Source of the DNA: Burkholderia savannae
GTDB taxonomy: Bacteria; Pseudomonadota; Gammaproteobacteria; Burkholderiales; Burkholderiaceae
Length of the DNA: 64,000 bases
Direction: 5' to 3'
Assembly: GCF_001524445.2 (NCBI RefSeq)
Contig: NZ_CP013417.1
Span: 4,154,001 to 4,218,000, forward strand
The number at the start of each line of letters is the position of its first letter. The stretch's first letter is position 1. Below are positions 25,793-32,096 of the stretch, piece after piece. The notes beneath the pieces are model-generated. The model was not told the DNA's origin. It saw only the letters and a program-made list of their open reading frames with translations, and ran no database searches. The translations under genes were made by a program, and so were the position numbers.

Positions 25793-25868
25793 GCGCCCGT
25801 AGCTCAATGGATAGAGTACTGCCCTCCGAAGGCAGGGGTTGCTGGTTCGATCCCAGCCGGGCGCGCCA
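25793..25868 (+). tRNA. tRNA-Arg (anticodon CCG)
   Basis: A complete cloverleaf is readable. The acceptor stem is gcgcccg / cgggcgc, the D-loop region 'tagctcaatggatagagta', the anticodon stem ctgcc / ggcag with loop ctccgaa (anticodon CCG, reading CGG), and the T arm gctgg-ttcgatc-ccagc. A genomic CCA ends at 25868. Its 3' end abuts a decayed tyrosine integrase and accessory genes, so it looks like a used integration site. Confidence 0.97.
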
Positions 25869-25936: not shown

Positions 25937-26290
25937 TTATCCGGCCCTTCGCATGTTTTCCTGCACCGCCGGCGGCAACTGGATCACTTCCGCGACCGAG
26001 GTATGCGGTGCCACCCAACGCGCGAGACGATCGGCCGACAGGTGCGCGTAGCGCTGCACCATCTCCGACGTTCCCCAGCCGCCGAGTTCCCTGAGCACCT
26101 GCAACGGCGTGCCGCGCTGCACGTGCTAGCTCGCCCAGGTGTGCCGCAGGTCGTGCCAGTGGAAATCGCCAACCCCCGCCCGCTTCAGTGCCTTCCGCGA
26201 TGACGTTGTACCCGGCTAACCGATCACTGAACCGCGGTAAACGAACGCGAGTTCGATGTGCACGGGGCTCCGCCGCTTCGACGAGTCAGC
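25937..26290 (-). pseudogene. Tyrosine-recombinase (phage-type integrase) remnant
   Basis: The C-terminal catalytic part of a phage/island integrase can be reconstructed on the minus strand, interrupted by stops. 'HIELAFVYRGSVIG' ends in a stop, then 'GTTSSRKALKRAGVGDFHWH', then 'HDLRHTWAS' followed by a TAG stop, then 'HVQRGTPLQVLRELGGWGTS' and 'EMVQRYAHLSADRLARW' to the end at 25937. The H-x-L-R-H box, the second His/Trp region (ELGGW) and the catalytic Tyr (QRYAHL) are visible; the N-terminal half is missing or unrecognisable. It lies 68 bp from tRNA-Arg, the typical position for an integrase that used this tRNA as attachment site. Inactive. Confidence 0.85.
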
Positions 26291-26768
26291 CAGTCTGACC
26301 GACGAGGAGCGCGCTGATGCTAGTGCCCGTGAGCCGATCGTAGAGCGTCTACGTGACCCGGCCCTGATCGACGGCCGGCGCGTGGGGCCGTTCCGCGAAC
26401 GGCCCGTCGTTGTCCATGCAGACAATGACCCATTCTCACGACCCCTTTCCCCGGTTCGCGACAATCCTCGCGCGGCCGCGGAGCGCGGAACCCAGCGGAA
26501 CATTTCTGATTTCTCAATTTCCATGAAATTCATGTAATCACCATGTCTCTCCATCCGCCCGATCAACAATCGAAAAATCAATTATCGATCAAATAAAAAA
26601 CCGATCGTCGTTTAATCGATTTAATGAAAAATACAAATCGAATCGCTTTAAGGAAAATATATTGGCGTTCGCCGAATTAAGGTCCTAGCATAAATTCCAT
26701 TGGCATCGCGAATAGCTTCCAACGTTGGTCTTGCCGATGTCCGGCATGTTTGCAGCAAAGGAGGCGAA
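26291..26768. other. AT-rich accessory stretch without a gene
   Basis: The left part may hold further degraded integrase sequence. The right part (about 26500-26700) is clearly AT-rich compared with the rest of the window, with runs such as 'aatcaattatcgatcaaata'. It probably contains the promoter for the monooxygenase gene and is a candidate target for H-NS-type silencing. The base composition supports horizontal origin. Confidence 0.6.
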
Positions 26769-27413
26769 ATGAGCACTATCGGTTCGAGAAGCGCAACGAA
26801 GTCTTCGTCAATTGCACCGAGGCACGGTCGCGTCATCACGCCCGAATCGCGCGCCGTGTTTCTTTACGAAGCAGGAAAACTCGATTTCGGGCAAGTCAAC
26901 GAACTGGAAGGCGGCAAGTTCTTTCCTGCGACCCAGGGCGGTCTGAGAGATCCGGACGCGCCGGACGACGTCGCCAACGGCGTGCCGCCGCGCGACGGCG
27001 AAATCGCAAGCGGCGGGCGCACGGTGGATGCCCGCGCGCAACTCGACGAGCCCGATTCCGTCGCGCACTGGCGCAAGCACGCAGTGCGGTCGGGCCAGTC
27101 GTTGCAAATCACGTGGTCGTATTCGATGCCGCACAAGACGCGGCGCTGGACGTACTGGATCACCAAGCCGGGATGGGATGCCAGTGCGCGGCTCACGCGC
27201 GCGCAATTCGAGTCCGAGCCGCTCAAGATCTATCTGAACACGTATCAGCCGTACTGGGGGCCGGACGCGGACCGGGAACTGATTCCCAGCGGCGACACGG
27301 TTCACGAACTCAATCTGCCGACTCGCACGGGCTATCACGTGCTGCTCGCGGCCTGGGACGTTGCCGATACCGCGAACGCTTTCTATCAGGTGATCGACCT
27401 GAATTTCGCGTGA
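26769..27413 (+). CDS. AA10-type lytic polysaccharide monooxygenase, no signal peptide
   Basis: A 214-residue copper monooxygenase-like protein of the chitin/cellulose-active AA10 family. The core begins 'HGRVITPESRA' at His19, the position of the N-terminal copper ligand in secreted family members. Other matches are 'DGEIASGGR', the second copper His122 in 'YSMPHKTRRWTYWITKPGWD' and the axial Phe205 in 'WDVADTANAFYQVID'. Secreted LPMOs expose the first His by signal-peptide cleavage, but here the 18 residues before it are polar ('MSTIGSRSATKSSSIAPR'), with no hydrophobic core. A perfect AAAGGAGG lies 5 nt before ATG 26769, so the start is well supported. Activity would need another processing or export route. 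Followed by a flavin oxidase. Confidence 0.88.
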   Translation: MSTIGSRSATKSSSIAPRHGRVITPESRAVFLYEAGKLDFGQVNELEGGKFFPATQGGLRDPDAPDDVANGVPPRDGEIASGGRTVDARAQLDEPDSVAHWRKHAVRSGQSLQITWSYSMPHKTRRWTYWITKPGWDASARLTRAQFESEPLKIYLNTYQPYWGPDADRELIPSGDTVHELNLPTRTGYHVLLAAWDVADTANAFYQVIDLNFA

Positions 27414-27597
27414 ATCCGCTCGCCCGTCCGAACTGATGCGCAGCTGCGATCGACGGCTCGCATCAAGCATCGCGGCCATCGGATTCGAGACCATCCGATG
27501 GCCATCTTGCACGCGCTTGCATCGGCGATCGCGCGTGGATCGCTCGATGGCCGTCCATTCGGTTTCGAAGCATCCGACACGCTCGCCGGAGGTTCAG

Positions 27598-29262
27598 ATG
27601 TCCTATGTGCTCGTCGACGGCGCAGATCCTCGTCATGCGACTCTCCAAAAGGGATTCAACCTGCGCTGGCCGCCGACGGCGGAAGCCGGCGCGGCGGCGA
27701 TCTACGTCTGTCGCACGCCGGATGACGTGATCGCGGCGTCGCGCGACGCGCTCGCGAGAGGTTGCCGGATCACGGTGCGCAGCGGCGGGCACTGTTACGA
27801 AGGCTTCGTCGCGAACCGGCTGCCGAGCGACAACGGTCGGCAGCTCGCCATCGTCGATATCGGCTTGATGTCGGGCTTCGATTTCGATCCGCAGGGGCAG
27901 ATTGCGTCGCCGTTCGATGTCGCCGGCTCGGCGCGCTACTCGGTTCGTGTGGCCGCGGGCAGTCAGAATTGGAACGGCTATGTCGGCCTGTACAAGTCCG
28001 CCGGCAAGACGCTGCCCGGCGGCTCGTGCTATTCGGTGGGCGCGGGCGGTCACATCGTCGGCGGCGGATACGGCCTGCTTTCGCGGATGCACGGGCTGAC
28101 AGTCGACTGGCTGGCGGGCGTCGACATCCTGACGCCCGCATCCGGCGGCGGCGCGCTCGACGCGAAGCACGTGCATCTCGGCAGCGCCGATCCGGCGGAC
28201 CGTGCGCTGTTCATCGCGTGCCGCGGCGGCGGCGGCGGCAATTTCGGCATCATCCTGAATTACTACTTCCGGGCGCTGCCCGACGCGCCGCGCACCGCCT
28301 ATTGGCTGTCGCTCGCGTATGACTGGTCGCATTTCACGCAAGCGAGCTTCGGCCGTTTCATTCAGACCTACTGGGACTGGTTCAGCCGCAACGACGCCAA
28401 CTGGAACGCCGGCGATCCGGCGCTCGCGAACGGCGGGCTGTTCACGCTCCTGAAGCTGCAGCATCGCTCGACCGGGCCGATCGTGCTCGCGATCCAGTAC
28501 ACGGGAAAGAACGGAACGGTCGGCGGCCCGGCCGATGCGCCCTTCGTCGATTTCGTCGACACGATGAATGCGGCCGCCGGCCGGATGCCGGTCATCTGGG
28601 ATCGGTTCGTCGCGCCGAATCTGCCGTCGCTCGGGCATCCGCTCGCCGGGCTGCGTCTGACGCACGCGGTTCAAAACGCGTTGAAGATGGATTGGCTGTA
28701 CCTGACGCAGACGATCAACGGATCGGGGGCGAACCGGCGCGGGAAGTACAAGTCGGCGTATCAGATCGGCAATTTCGGCGACACCGAGATCGATGCGTTT
28801 TGGCGATATCTGAATACCGCGGACGAGCCGCGCCTGAACCAGACGCTCGTGCAGATCGATTCGTACGGCGGCTGCGTCAACGTGAACGACGAAAGCGCGA
28901 ATCCGACGTCGGTGTGCCAGCGGCGATCGCTGTTGAAGTCGCAGTACCAAACTTACTGGACGAATCCCGCCGACGACGCGTTCCACGTCGAATGGCTGCA
29001 CGATCTGTTCGCCGCGGTGCATGCGGATCAGGGCGGCAAGCCGTACCGCGACGCGAGCGGGCGCTACGAAGGCTGCTACATCAATTATCCGGACATCGAC
29101 ATGAAATATCTCGACAGCGATCCGGCGCAGATCGATCCGAGGTGGCTCGAGCTGTACTACGGCGACAAGGCCGCATCGCTGATCGCGACGAAGCGCGCGG
29201 TCGATCCGTCGAATATGTTCAGGCATGAGATGTCGATTCCGCTGGCGCCGCCGCCGGGCTGA
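27598..29262 (+). CDS. Berberine-bridge (AA7-like) FAD oxidase
   Basis: A 554-residue flavoprotein of the FAD_binding_4/BBE family, which includes carbohydrate (gluco- and chito-oligosaccharide) oxidases. Bicovalent flavin attachment is predicted: His65 in 'TVRSGGHCYEGF' and Cys144 in 'LPGGSCYSVGAGGHIVGGGY' match the two tethering residues. The C-terminal BBE segment is at 'ELYYGDKAASLIATKRAVDP'. The start is ATG 27598 after 'cggaggttcag'. There is no signal peptide. It lies 184 bp downstream of the AA10 monooxygenase on the same strand, and oxidases of this kind can supply H2O2 or electrons to LPMOs. Sugar specificity is inference; an alkaloid- or antibiotic-type substrate is possible. Confidence 0.85.
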   Translation: MSYVLVDGADPRHATLQKGFNLRWPPTAEAGAAAIYVCRTPDDVIAASRDALARGCRITVRSGGHCYEGFVANRLPSDNGRQLAIVDIGLMSGFDFDPQGQIASPFDVAGSARYSVRVAAGSQNWNGYVGLYKSAGKTLPGGSCYSVGAGGHIVGGGYGLLSRMHGLTVDWLAGVDILTPASGGGALDAKHVHLGSADPADRALFIACRGGGGGNFGIILNYYFRALPDAPRTAYWLSLAYDWSHFTQASFGRFIQTYWDWFSRNDANWNAGDPALANGGLFTLLKLQHRSTGPIVLAIQYTGKNGTVGGPADAPFVDFVDTMNAAAGRMPVIWDRFVAPNLPSLGHPLAGLRLTHAVQNALKMDWLYLTQTINGSGANRRGKYKSAYQIGNFGDTEIDAFWRYLNTADEPRLNQTLVQIDSYGGCVNVNDESANPTSVCQRRSLLKSQYQTYWTNPADDAFHVEWLHDLFAAVHADQGGKPYRDASGRYEGCYINYPDIDMKYLDSDPAQIDPRWLELYYGDKAASLIATKRAVDPSNMFRHEMSIPLAPPPG

Positions 29263-29461
29263 GCGCGCGATGGCCGAGGCAGGCGGATTGCGATCGTGTC
29301 CGGCAGCGCGCTGCCGACCGATCGCGAGATGTGCAGTCGAATGAGATTCTCGAACACGAAAGCATAGGGGACGAATTCGCCCGGGGCCGCCTTCGCGTTT
29401 CGCGTGCGAATTCGTTTGTCACTGTAAAGCCGGCGCATCGACGCCGCATCGGGAGATCAAG

Positions 29462-29833
29462 ATGCCGACAAAAATCGTGGATTTATCCGCACGCTCCGAA
29501 ATCATTCGCGACGAACCGTTCCATGTTCATTTTTGGGAATGCACGCCTGACGAATATCTCGAATATCTGTCCCATCCGCGCGACTTTTTGTCGAAGATCG
29601 GAATAAACATTCCGGACGACTGCCGAATCGAAACGACCATCGAGAATCACGATTGGATCGGTCAACATGCGCCGGGGTTGAAGAGCGCAAACGGAACGAT
29701 CATCTGCAACGTGGGCGGCGGCAACGTCGCGCGCGCCGTCTATCGCGTCGTGAGCTACGGCCACGATCATGCGACGGTCGGCAAATTCAAGAAACAGCTC
29801 TTGCACGCGGAAGACGAACAGCAAAAACGCTGA
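29462..29833 (+). CDS. Small protein of unknown function, third gene of LPMO/oxidase block
   Basis: A 123-residue protein I do not recognise with certainty. It starts 'MPTKIVDLSARSEIIRDEPF' after 'gggagatcaag', a fair ribosome binding site. Residues 38-60 ('SHPRDFLSKIGINIPDDCRI') resemble the leader region of nitrile-hydratase-like RiPP precursors (a helix, then G-x-x-I-P), and a Gly-Gly-Gly at 85-87 could be a leader cleavage point. No modification or peptidase gene is nearby, so this is only a suggestion. It is polar with no signal peptide or membrane segment. It lies 199 bp after the flavin oxidase and may be a partner of it. Confidence 0.65.
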   Translation: MPTKIVDLSARSEIIRDEPFHVHFWECTPDEYLEYLSHPRDFLSKIGINIPDDCRIETTIENHDWIGQHAPGLKSANGTIICNVGGGNVARAVYRVVSYGHDHATVGKFKKQLLHAEDEQQKR

Positions 29834-29906
29834 CATTCGCGGGAGGGCGGCCGCGGCATGAATGGTCGGGCAATGGTGCGGGCGGCGCGCGTGCGCTGCG
29901 ATCGTG

Positions 29907-29934
29907 CGCGGCCGCGCGAGTACGCGCGGCCGCG
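29907..29934. repeat. Perfect 12-bp GC palindrome
   Basis: cgcggccgcgcg - agta - cgcgcggccgcg. The stem could act as a terminator for the small gene upstream, but there is no T run. The surrounding 29834-30158 interval contains no gene I accept. Confidence 0.6.
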
Positions 29935-30158
29935 ATTCAGCGTTTCCTTCGCTTCGAAAGCGATCGAACCGGAACGGCGCGTCGCGCGGACGAAGATCCA
30001 TTTCCCGCAGGTCGTCGATTCGCGCGGCATCGCCATGTTCGTCGGCTGATTCGATCACTTTTTTGTTGATCGAAACATGGCGTTGACGCAGATAAAAAAT
30101 GCCCGCGCATTCCGTATAAACCCTAGGGAGAAAACCCTGACTCTTCACACCATTCGGG

Positions 30159-30186
30159 TTAAGTCGAGCGTTTTCTTGGCCGTTAA
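30159..30186 (+). promoter_or_regulatory. Candidate sigma-28 (FliA) promoter for the chemoreceptor
   Basis: TTAAGTCG, 12-bp spacer, GCCGTTAA, close to the flagellar sigma-28 pattern (TAAAGTTT-N11-GCCGATAA). It ends 32 bp before the chemoreceptor start, consistent with class III flagellar control. Confidence 0.6.
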
Positions 30187-30218
30187 CCCATGAGTTCGCA
30201 CATCCCACGTCGCTCCTC

Positions 30219-32024
30219 ATGCTCTCCTCGATCCGGTCCCGCATTCTCGTCGCGTGCCTTGCCATCGTCATCGGCGCGCTCGTCATCAATACGGCGCTCA
30301 ATTATTTCGTCGCCAATCGCTACAACCGCGAGTCCATCAGCCAGAACCTCAGCGCGGTGCTGACCGGCCACGAGGCCGGCATCGCCGATTGGGTCGCGTC
30401 GAAGACGCAGATGATCGTATCGGTCGAAGACGCCGCGCTCGCGCCCGATCCGATCCCGGCGCTCAAGCAGATCGCCGCGGCGGGCGGATTCACCAACGTC
30501 TACGTCGGCTACGCGGACAAAACCGCGAAATTCTCGGACGCATCCGGCATTCCGGCCGACTACGATCCCACCGGCCGCCCGTGGTACAAGCAGGCCGTGC
30601 AGGCGGGCAAGCCTGTCGTCACGCCGCCTTATGTCGACGTCGGGACGGGCAAGCTCGTCGTTGCGTTCGCCGCGCCGATCGTGCGCGACGGCGCGCTGAA
30701 GGGCGTCGTGTCCGGCGACGTCGCGATGGACAGCGTGATCGCGAACGTCAAGGCGATCCATCCGACGCCCGAGAGCTTCGGCATGCTCGTGGACCGCGGC
30801 GGCCACATCGTCGCGCATTCCGATCCGAAGCTCACGCTCAAGCCCGTCACCGATCTGACGGACGACTTGAGCGTCGACGCGCTCGCCGCGTCGTCGGCCG
30901 ACGACAACGCCGCGCCGATCGAGGCGCACGTCGCCGGCGCCGCGAAGCTGATGCGCGCGCGCGCCGTGCCGGGCACCGACTGGCTGACCGTCGTCGCGCT
31001 CGACAAGTCCGATGCGATGGCCGGCATGCATTCGCTGCTGCTCGTGTCGATCGGCACGCTCGTCGCGCTCGTCGTCGTCGCGGCGCTGATCGTGGGCGCC
31101 ATCACGGGCGTCGCGTTCAAGGGGCTCGCGCGCATTCGCGACGCGATGGAGTCGATCGGCTCCGGCACGGGCGACCTGACGCAGCGCCTGCCCGACGCCG
31201 GGCGTGACGAAGTCGCGCAGATCGCCCGCTCGTTCAACGCGTTCGTCGGCAAGCTGCAGGACGTGATACGCGTGATCCGCGACGCGAGCGAATCGGTGCG
31301 GCACGCGGCGGGCGAAATCGCATCGGGCAACCATGATCTGTCGCGCCGCACGGAATCGGCCGCGGCGAGCCTCGAACAGACGGCCGCGTCGATCGAGGAG
31401 ATCACGTCGACGGTCACGCAATCGGCGGGCGCCGCGCGCCAGGCCAACGACATCGCGACGAACGCGGCGAGCGTCGCGTCGCGCGGCGGCTCGGTCGTGT
31501 CCGACGTCGTGTCGACGATGCAGGAGATCGAGGGCGCGTCCGGCAAGATCAGCGACATCATCGGCGTGATCGACGGCATCGCGTTCCAGACCAACATCCT
31601 TGCGCTGAACGCGGCCGTCGAGGCGGCGCGTGCGGGCGAGGAAGGGCGCGGCTTCGCGGTGGTCGCGGGCGAGGTGCGTTCGCTCGCGCAGCGTAGCGCG
31701 CAGGCGGCGAAGGAGATCAAGGCGCTGATCGATTCGAGCGTGTCGAGCGTGTCGACGGGCGCGACGCTCGTTCAGCAGGCGGGGCAGACGATGAACGACA
31801 TCGTCGGCACGGTCTCGAACGTGACGACGATCATGCGCGAGATTTCGAACGCCGCCGACGAGCAGACGCGCGGCATCCAGGAGGTGAACCGCGCGGTCGC
31901 GCAGCTCGACGAGATGGTTCAGCAGAACGCGGCGCTCGTCGAGCAGTCGGCCGCGGCGGCGTCGGCGCTGCAGACGCAGGCGGTCGAGCTCGCCGAGGCG
32001 GTCGGGCGGTTCAAGGTCGCATGA
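30219..32024 (+). CDS. Methyl-accepting chemotaxis protein, Cache sensor
   Basis: A 601-residue inner-membrane chemoreceptor. TM1 lies at about 9-30 ('[20 protein letters not shown]'). A periplasmic double-Cache domain with the ligand-site signature '[20 protein letters not shown]' suggests an amino acid or related small ligand. TM2 is '[20 protein letters not shown]' (about 270-292), followed by HAMP and the signalling hairpin with the invariant '[20 protein letters not shown]' tip. There is no C-terminal CheR-docking pentapeptide, unlike the receptor at 61584. It is a stand-alone gene with a candidate FliA promoter, transcribed away from the main che operon. Confidence 0.95.
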
Positions 32025-32096
32025 TCGTCGTTGCGCGGGACGCGTTGCCGCCTCCTTTGCGCACGGGCGCGCGCGGCCGTCGGAGAATGCCGCCCG

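What the first reader, a model, noticed from the sequence alone, without database searches (positions are those of the whole stretch)
26769..29833. Signal-less LPMO plus AA7-like flavin oxidase plus unknown small gene beside tRNA-Arg
Three same-strand genes in an AT-flanked accessory block encode an AA10-type copper monooxygenase, a bicovalent-flavin BBE oxidase (His65/Cys144) and an unrecognised 123-residue protein. Seen directly: all copper-site residues of an LPMO (His19, His122, Phe205), but no hydrophobic signal sequence before His19, which must be the mature N-terminus for activity. Established: AA7-type oxidases can feed electrons or H2O2 to LPMOs. Inferred: this is a self-contained oxidative polysaccharide-degrading unit with non-Sec export, or an internal or toxin-like use. 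I know of no described system of this composition.
Basis: partly seen in the sequence, partly recalled or inferred. Interest (0 to 1): 0.82.

Follow-up and report, generated by a model that had tools for sequence, protein, structure and literature searches.

The report
Signal-less chitin oxidase pair in Burkholderia
Two neighbouring bacterial genes encode a copper enzyme of the kind that cuts chitin and a flavin enzyme that probably makes hydrogen peroxide from chitin sugars; neither carries the usual export tag, and the copper enzyme belongs to a whole branch of relatives without that tag, so how such enzymes leave the cell and are switched on is an open and testable question.

Summary
The window (a Burkholderia near the pseudomallei group) encodes an AA10 LPMO with 18 hydrophilic residues before the copper-binding His19, a bicovalent-flavin BBE oxidase and a 123-residue protein. 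The LPMO is no oddity: 67 signal-less AA10 rows from two phyla form one supported clade. They keep the copper ligands, have mostly lost the cysteines conserved in secreted AA10s, and often have Pro-Arg before the histidine. The solved ortholog 3UAM still shows residues 17-18 in front of His19 and no listed metal: it looks like an unprocessed pro-form. The oxidase's closest solved relative is an N-acetylhexosamine oxidase. All 5 of 65 genus genomes with the oxidase have an AA10 LPMO next door, in two arrangements; 6 other signal-less LPMO loci lack the oxidase. Some relatives of both enzymes carry the same chitin-binding tail, without signals; one lies near holin and lysozyme genes. Best reading: a leaderless chitin-oxidising pair, released by lysis or a holin, the LPMO activated by trimming. 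Release, trimming and peroxide coupling are inferred. The third gene is an unlinked, extremely conserved passenger with weak NHLP-leader similarity.

The parts
25793..25868 (+). tRNA-Arg (CCG); integration site next to which the module lies
   Evidence: ARAGORN; the same tRNA stands between the same flanks, without the module, in G030 and G033
25937..26122 (-). C-terminal remnant of a tyrosine integrase
   Evidence: PHROG integrase families E 5e-4 and 5.5e-3, phrog_35951 (unknown function) E 3.9e-9; a longer remnant at the same place in G033 matches PF00589
26450..26768 (+). AT-rich region upstream of the LPMO, with Shine-Dalgarno GGAGG
   Evidence: 44% GC at 26450-26749; sequence; no sigma-70-like site found in 26400-30300
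26769..27413 (+). AA10 LPMO without signal peptide and without cysteine
26769..26822 (+). 18-residue disordered leader (proposed propeptide) ending Pro17-Arg18 before His19
   Evidence: pLDDT under 50 for residues 1-17; dN/dS 0.43, 1.58, 1.15 against 0.15, 0.09, 0.15 in the domain, 18 codons only; junction counts
27598..29262 (+). BBE/VAO-type flavin oxidase resembling N-acetyl-D-hexosamine oxidase; His65 and Cys144; no signal peptide
   Evidence: N-terminus
29462..29833 (+). 123-aa conserved protein with weak NHLP-leader similarity; probably a passenger, not part of the pair

Best explanation
The first two genes are a leaderless chitin-oxidising pair. The LPMO is made and folds in the cytoplasm as an inactive pro-form: with 18 residues in front of His19 the copper histidine brace cannot form. 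The pair leaves the cell by a non-Sec route, most likely lysis or holin-type release from some cells, as type 10 secretion (T10SS) cargo does. Outside, the disordered leader is cut off next to the histidine and copper binds. The oxidase turns N-acetylglucosamine or chitobiose into lactone plus H2O2, which drives the LPMO on chitin. Shown: sequence families, absence of a recognisable signal, one signal-less clade, cysteine loss in that clade, a near-neutral leader beside a constrained domain, solved-ortholog residues still in front of the histidine, AA10-oxidase adjacency in the genus in two arrangements, chitin-binding tails on some relatives. Inferred: substrate, peroxide coupling, lysis release, trimming.
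For: (1) 67 signal-less AA10 rows are one side of a branch, SH-aLRT 95, one change of state; ligands H/H/F in 58 of 59 rows of the database set, window included. (2) Cysteines: none in the domain of 48 of 59 signal-less rows, window included; the pair that 41 of 43 secreted rows share at two columns is present in 1 of 59 at each, as expected for folding in the reducing cytoplasm (general knowledge). (3) Leaders: -2 Pro in 48 of 57, -1 Arg in 41 of 57, both in 33; secreted rows: -1 Ala in 33 of 43. (4) AF2: residues 1-17 under pLDDT 50, fold from 19 on. (5) 3UAM chain A aligns from residue 17 by the entry's own numbers, so Pro17-Arg18 still precede His19; the metal column is '-' in the table of PMC5094447. 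(6) Best solved match of the oxidase is 7zzk, E 1.7e-118, an enzyme active on GlcNAc, GalNAc and chitobiose (PMC9299179). (7) 5 of 5 genus genomes with the oxidase have an adjacent AA10: in G000, G068, G006 signal-less LPMO then oxidase; in G014, G086 oxidase, 42-base gap, Sec-type AA10. (8) fn3 and CBM5/12 modules on signal-less LPMOs (L051, L053, L055, L056, L057, P0150), on oxidases (P0281, P0285; CBM only on P0298) and on the GH18 beside the LPMO in L055-L057. (9) Enterobacter huaxiensis plasmid: signal-less LPMO, next gene but one a holin (PF16931), phage lysozyme (PF00959) about 4 kb on. (10) In Yersinia entomophaga the proteins enriched in the secreted fraction, chitin-modifying enzymes included, nearly all lack signals and need the T10SS (PMC10847048, passages). 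(11) 4 of 120 listed oxidase relatives begin with a twin-arginine-like signal, so the enzyme probably acts outside the cytoplasm in some species.
Against: No oxidase relative in the fetched flanks of 6 other signal-less LPMO loci (L051, L052, L053, L055-L057) and no LPMO relative near 2 distant oxidases (L080, L081). No holin or endolysin among the seven window genes run against Pfam; the whole genome was not searched for a T10SS. -1 is Leu, Met, Lys, Ala, Gln or Ser in 16 of 57, so no single protease fits. The one GH18 found in the genome has, by reading, a Sec signal. Absence of signals rests on hydropathy and inspection. G014 and G086 look like near relatives, so the second arrangement is probably one event. 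Cysteine loss may be one old event and so one data point.
Confidence: 0.54

Rival explanations
1. Cytoplasmic pair: the oxidase handles GlcNAc from wall recycling and the LPMO-like protein is a non-catalytic chitin-, GlcNAc- or copper-binding protein that never matures.
For: No export signal on either; cysteine loss fits a cytoplasmic protein; 3UAM without listed metal; PMC9299179 names GlcNAc from peptidoglycan recycling as a possible substrate (section 10).
Against: Copper ligands kept in 58 of 59 rows and domain dN/dS 0.09-0.15; some relatives carry chitin-binding modules; the same paper says intracellular peroxide-producing oxidases are rare.
Confidence: 0.17
2. Contact-dependent or injected delivery (T6SS, extracellular contractile injection) of a signal-less antifungal or anti-insect enzyme pair.
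For: Signal-less enzymes; one relative of the small gene lies close upstream of contractile sheath and tube genes in Crenothrix (L008).
Against: No injection gene among the seven window genes run against Pfam; the small gene is not linked to the LPMO in 11 other loci.
Confidence: 0.12
3. The LPMO and oxidase are unrelated passengers of an integration hotspot at tRNA-Arg.
For: Integrase remnants, and the same flanks without the module in G030 and G033; the small gene looks like such a passenger; no linkage at the 8 other loci looked at.
Against: AA10-oxidase adjacency recurs in reversed order, with another AA10 subfamily, in G014 and G086.
Confidence: 0.12
4. Decayed or misannotated secreted LPMO whose signal peptide was lost in this lineage alone.
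For: The locus lies in an accessory block.
Against: One clade of 67 signal-less rows; start codon with Shine-Dalgarno conserved in three genomes; a stop lies 11 codons before the matched stretch in the relative L016.
Confidence: 0.02

Closest known systems
3UAM, BpAA10_A, AA10 protein of Burkholderia pseudomallei (solved structure; no activity given in the tables seen)
   Same: 89% identity over residues 17-214, rmsd 0.7, same ligands
   Different: Ortholog; in the passages seen it is treated as an AA10 structure without comment on a missing signal
CBP21 and GbpA-type secreted AA10 LPMOs
   Different: CBP21 has a Sec signal (PMC5778951); this clade has no recognisable signal and mostly lacks the shared cysteines
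N-acetyl-D-hexosamine oxidase of Ralstonia solanacearum (7zzk; PMC9299179)
   Same: Match over residues 7-548, E 1.7e-118; the His and Cys positions align
   Different: Substrate not tested here; an LPMO partner is not mentioned in the passages read
T10SS cargo of Yersinia entomophaga and Serratia (signal-less chitinases and others)
   Same: Leaderless chitin-acting enzymes; one relative near holin and lysozyme genes
   Different: No lysis cassette found near the window locus; dependence on one not tested
Fungal AA7-LPMO interplay (PMC8035211)
   Same: BBE-fold sugar oxidoreductase that primes or fuels an LPMO
   Different: Fungal, secreted, cellulose and AA9; here bacterial, signal-less, probably chitin, and genetically linked

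Membership tests
AA10 LPMO | LPMO_10 domain and fold | tested here: met
AA10 LPMO | Two copper histidines and axial Phe | tested here: met
   His19, His122, Phe205
AA10 LPMO | First histidine at the mature N-terminus | tested here: inconclusive
   18 residues precede it as encoded; maturation cannot be seen from sequence; 3UAM still shows residues 17-18
AA10 LPMO | Secretory signal peptide (called universal for LPMOs in PMC10952591; not part of the sequence-family definition) | tested here: not met
   by hydropathy and inspection, no SignalP
N-acetyl-D-hexosamine oxidase / AA7-like BBE oxidases | FAD_binding_4 and BBE domains with bicovalent His and Cys | tested here: met
   Domains. His in 116 and Cys in 119 of 121 aligned rows, window included; covalent links themselves not testable
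N-acetyl-D-hexosamine oxidase / AA7-like BBE oxidases | Oxidation of GlcNAc/GalNAc with H2O2 formed | not testable with these tools
   Needs an assay; the nearest solved enzyme does so
T10SS cargo | Signal-less, chitin-acting protein | tested here: inconclusive
   Signal-less. Chitin action inferred from domains of relatives
T10SS cargo | Release depends on a holin-endolysin cassette | not tested
   Cassette-like genes near a relative (L053); none among seven window genes; whole genome not searched for one
NHLP-type RiPP precursor (small gene) | Leader domain TIGR03793 over its cut-off | tested here: not met
   Window protein 12.8 bits, cut-off 50.9; 24 of 26 members hit the model at E 1 or better, best E 1.7e-5
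NHLP-type RiPP precursor (small gene) | Modifying enzymes next door | not tested
   No systematic scan of flanks for such enzymes was made

The most novel reading that the evidence does not exclude
An old clade of histidine-brace copper enzymes works as true zymogens: made and folded in the cytoplasm without any signal, kept harmless by a short disordered propeptide that blocks the terminal amine, set free by lysis or holin release, and switched on by proteolytic trimming next to the histidine; in Burkholderia together with a genetically paired GlcNAc oxidase as its own peroxide source.
Probability: 0.4. Interest if true: 0.85.

Novelty: new variant of a known kind. Interest (0 to 1): 0.68.

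Why it matters
A 2023 review states that all known LPMO sequences carry N-terminal signal peptides and that signal removal is what allows copper to bind (PMC10952591, passages seen). A supported clade of signal-less AA10s spanning two phyla, with copper ligands kept and the usual cysteines mostly gone, contradicts the first statement and raises a direct question: who uncovers the histidine, where and when? It also gives a bacterial case in which an LPMO and a probable GlcNAc oxidase are genetic neighbours, so the idea that LPMOs are fed by dedicated H2O2 makers can be tested with natural partners.

Tried and rejected
Three-gene unit: rejected. Upstream in-frame start giving a signal: rejected. 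Tat signal on the LPMO or on the window's oxidase: no twin arginine with a hydrophobic stretch seen in the N-termini (by reading). Fold of the small protein: AF2 mean pLDDT 67 and no Foldseek match at E 0.001, best E 0.055 to a deaminase of Pseudomonas; inconclusive. PHROG families and phage records for the small protein: none at the thresholds used. Plasmid records: three Variovorax hits of 55-62% identity. Linkage outside the genus: a class sample (369 genomes) and an order sample (300) hold the oxidase at E 1e-80 only in G000, and the class sample holds the LPMO alignment at E 1e-50 only in G000; they say that both are rare, nothing about linkage. Finding an Enterobacterales genome handle through the Hha family failed: 0 of 80 and 0 of 369. 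Comparing contig lengths among the listed database hits by eye linked only small protein P0001 and LPMO P0123 (both 11,853 bases). Literature searches. Twelve papers were opened, by passages, one of them with one section in full. No title, abstract start or passage that I saw describes a signal-less AA10 clade; PMC10350509, which pairs 'AA10' with 'no signal peptide', means a chitinase; [quoted passage not shown] No held paper has both 'LPMO' and 'T10SS'. Subscription papers and CAZy were not searched.
Full report
What is there. The window lies in a 7.43-Mb, three-contig Burkholderia genome (G000). Three same-strand genes follow tRNA-Arg(CCG): an AA10 LPMO (26769-27413), a BBE-type flavin oxidase (27598-29262) and a 123-residue protein (29462-29833). 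Each has a Shine-Dalgarno-like sequence close before its ATG; those of the first two are conserved in G068 and G006. Close relatives are labelled B. thailandensis, B. oklahomensis, B. pseudomallei and Burkholderia sp. BDU5, 86-89% identical; G006 is probably BDU5, because both show a 3,838,800-base contig. That assignment, and 'near the pseudomallei group', are inference.

A signal-less clade. Of 105 database homologs I dropped P0130, P0162 and P0174 (they start after the histidine) and P0184 (ligands lost). The rest, the window and nine proteins from fetched loci gave a tree of 111 rows. The 67 signal-less rows are one side of a branch (SH-aLRT 95, one change of state), next to five Sec-type LPMOs of Burkholderia and Paraburkholderia (quick method, no bootstrap; labels by inspection and hydropathy, no SignalP). 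Named sources in the clade include Burkholderia, Pseudomonas, Chromobacterium, Streptomyces, Frankia, Kitasatospora, Sodalis and Enterobacter. In the genus at least 6 of 65 genomes have such an LPMO (G000, G068, G006, G064, G019, G018); nine weaker matches were not fetched or read.

Features of the clade, counted on 59 rows (window and database hits). Ligands are H/H/F in 58; P0165 has Arg at the second position. Leaders are 1-58 residues long and differ freely, but of 57 with three or more residues 48 have Pro at -2, 41 Arg at -1 and 33 both; of the 43 secreted rows 33 have Ala at -1. The catalytic domain has no cysteine in 48 of 59, the window included, and seven rows have two or three; of 43 secreted rows 41 share a cysteine pair at two columns where 1 of 59 signal-less rows has cysteine. 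Loss of disulphide cysteines together with the signal is what folding in the cytoplasm predicts (general knowledge); it may be one old event. Some leaders are fairly hydrophobic (P0143 1.81, P0153 1.63 on a 12-residue Kyte-Doolittle scale; the weakest complete secreted signals reach 1.88), so single members may be mislabelled. Between G000, G068 and G006 the domain has dN/dS 0.15, 0.09 and 0.15 and the leader 0.43, 1.58 and 1.15 (18 codons only).

Why this is odd. PMC10952591 (passages) says all known LPMO sequences contain signal peptides and that, until the signal is cut, the brace cannot bind copper at biological pH. PMC12897692 (passages) reports that AA10 domains of other bacteria aggregate when made without a signal peptide. 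A clade adapted to the cytoplasm, with a leader that blocks the amine, is what a proenzyme would look like. That step is inference.

The oxidase. The best solved match is 7zzk, N-acetyl-D-hexosamine oxidase (E 1.7e-118), active on GlcNAc, GalNAc and, with weaker affinity, chitobiose; its finders call its role unclear (PMC9299179, abstract, passages and section 10). His65 and Cys144 align in 116 and 119 of 121 rows. Of the 120 relatives listed (of 2485 found), four begin with a twin-arginine-like signal (P0286, P0287, P0288, P0292; motif recognised from memory); in the other rows no N-terminal stretch passed my hydropathy cut or caught my eye. So in some species this enzyme probably acts outside the cytoplasm.

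Co-occurrence. Among 65 genomes of the genus, 5 carry the oxidase at E 1e-40 or better (weakest 9.4e-134). In G000, G068 and G006 it follows the signal-less LPMO. In G014 and G086, which look like near relatives, it stands 42 bases upstream of a Sec-type AA10 with a GbpA_2 domain. So 5 of 5 have an AA10 next door, in two arrangements with two AA10 subfamilies. Against this: none of 6 other signal-less LPMO loci (L051, L052, L053, L055, L056, L057) has an oxidase relative in its flanks, and two distant oxidases on actinobacterial plasmids (38-40% identity) have no LPMO near. Outside the genus linkage could not be measured.

Chitin and export. Some signal-less relatives carry fn3 and CBM5/12 modules: LPMOs L051, L053, L055-L057 and P0150, oxidases P0281, P0285 and (CBM only) P0298, and the GH18 next to the LPMO in L055-L057. 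These are proteins built to sit on chitin that have no recognisable signal. On the Enterobacter huaxiensis plasmid the next gene but one after the LPMO is a holin (PF16931), with a LysR gene and, about 4 kb on, a phage lysozyme (PF00959). In Yersinia entomophaga the proteins enriched in the secreted fraction, chitin-modifying enzymes included, nearly all lack signals and depend on the T10SS (PMC10847048, passages), and a chitin-binding protein is among the exoproteins whose release needs the lysis cluster (PMC10101115, passage). In chitin-grown Jeongeupia the secretome held an AA7-predicted oxidoreductase, an AA10 LPMO and two signal-less GH18s (PMC10455584, passages; that LPMO does have a leader). 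A fungal AA7 dehydrogenase can prime and fuel LPMOs, an AA7 oxidase did so less well (PMC8035211, passages). From these I infer release by lysis or a holin, trimming outside, and peroxide supply by the oxidase. In G000 no such cassette was found among the few neighbours examined, the whole genome was not searched for one, and its one GH18 has, by reading, a Sec signal.

The locus. G030 and G033 have the same flanks (helicase, cytochrome, tRNA-Arg; chemotaxis gene) without the module; integrase remnants lie at the tRNA in G033 and in the window. The module therefore occupies an integration site; gain and loss cannot be told apart here.

The third gene. It has 603 homologs at E 1e-3; the 25 aligned are 69-98% identical to it, from sources named Burkholderia, Crenothrix, Roseomonas, Massilia and Myxococcota among others. 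It is scarce in genomes: 2 of 65 in the genus and 8 loci from one strict-pattern scan of the species genomes. Between G000 and G006 dS is 0.79 and dN 0.007. Twenty-four of 26 members hit the NHLP leader model weakly (best E 1.7e-5; the window's own E 0.081, 12.8 bits against a cut-off of 50.9). None of 11 other loci holds an LPMO or oxidase relative at E 1e-3. It is a puzzle of its own, not part of the pair.

Verdict. The sequence facts are solid, the pairing within Burkholderia is good, the export and zymogen steps are reasoned guesses. New variant of a known kind.

Noticed in passing
29462-29833: The 123-aa protein is under extreme constraint (dN/dS 0.009) and spread thinly over several phyla with no steady neighbour seen; it looks like a stand-alone NHLP-leader-like domain with a conserved, not variable, C-terminal half.
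   Followed up: partly
L008 1267-5134: In Crenothrix polyspora the small gene lies close upstream of a contractile-injection cluster (sheath PF04984, tube PF06841).
   Followed up: partly
L055-L057: GH18-fn3-CBM5/12 chitinase without recognisable signal next to a signal-less LPMO-fn3-CBM5/12 in three Burkholderia genomes.
   Followed up: partly
L001 and L059: The Sec-type AA10 lies upstream of an AhpC gene in G000 and, with an M4 protease between, upstream of AhpC and an AhpF-like reductase in G086: peroxide-handling genes near another AA10.
   Followed up: partly
L053 7959-13813: A conjugative Enterobacter huaxiensis plasmid carries a signal-less LPMO with holin, LysR and lysozyme genes nearby, a possible mobile chitin-release cassette.
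   Followed up: partly
P0286, P0287, P0288, P0292: A few relatives of the oxidase begin with a twin-arginine-like signal, so the same enzyme seems to be exported folded in some species.
   Followed up: no
31933-32029: ARAGORN calls a 97-base tRNA-Cys overlapping the 3' end of the chemotaxis gene; probably spurious.
   Followed up: no
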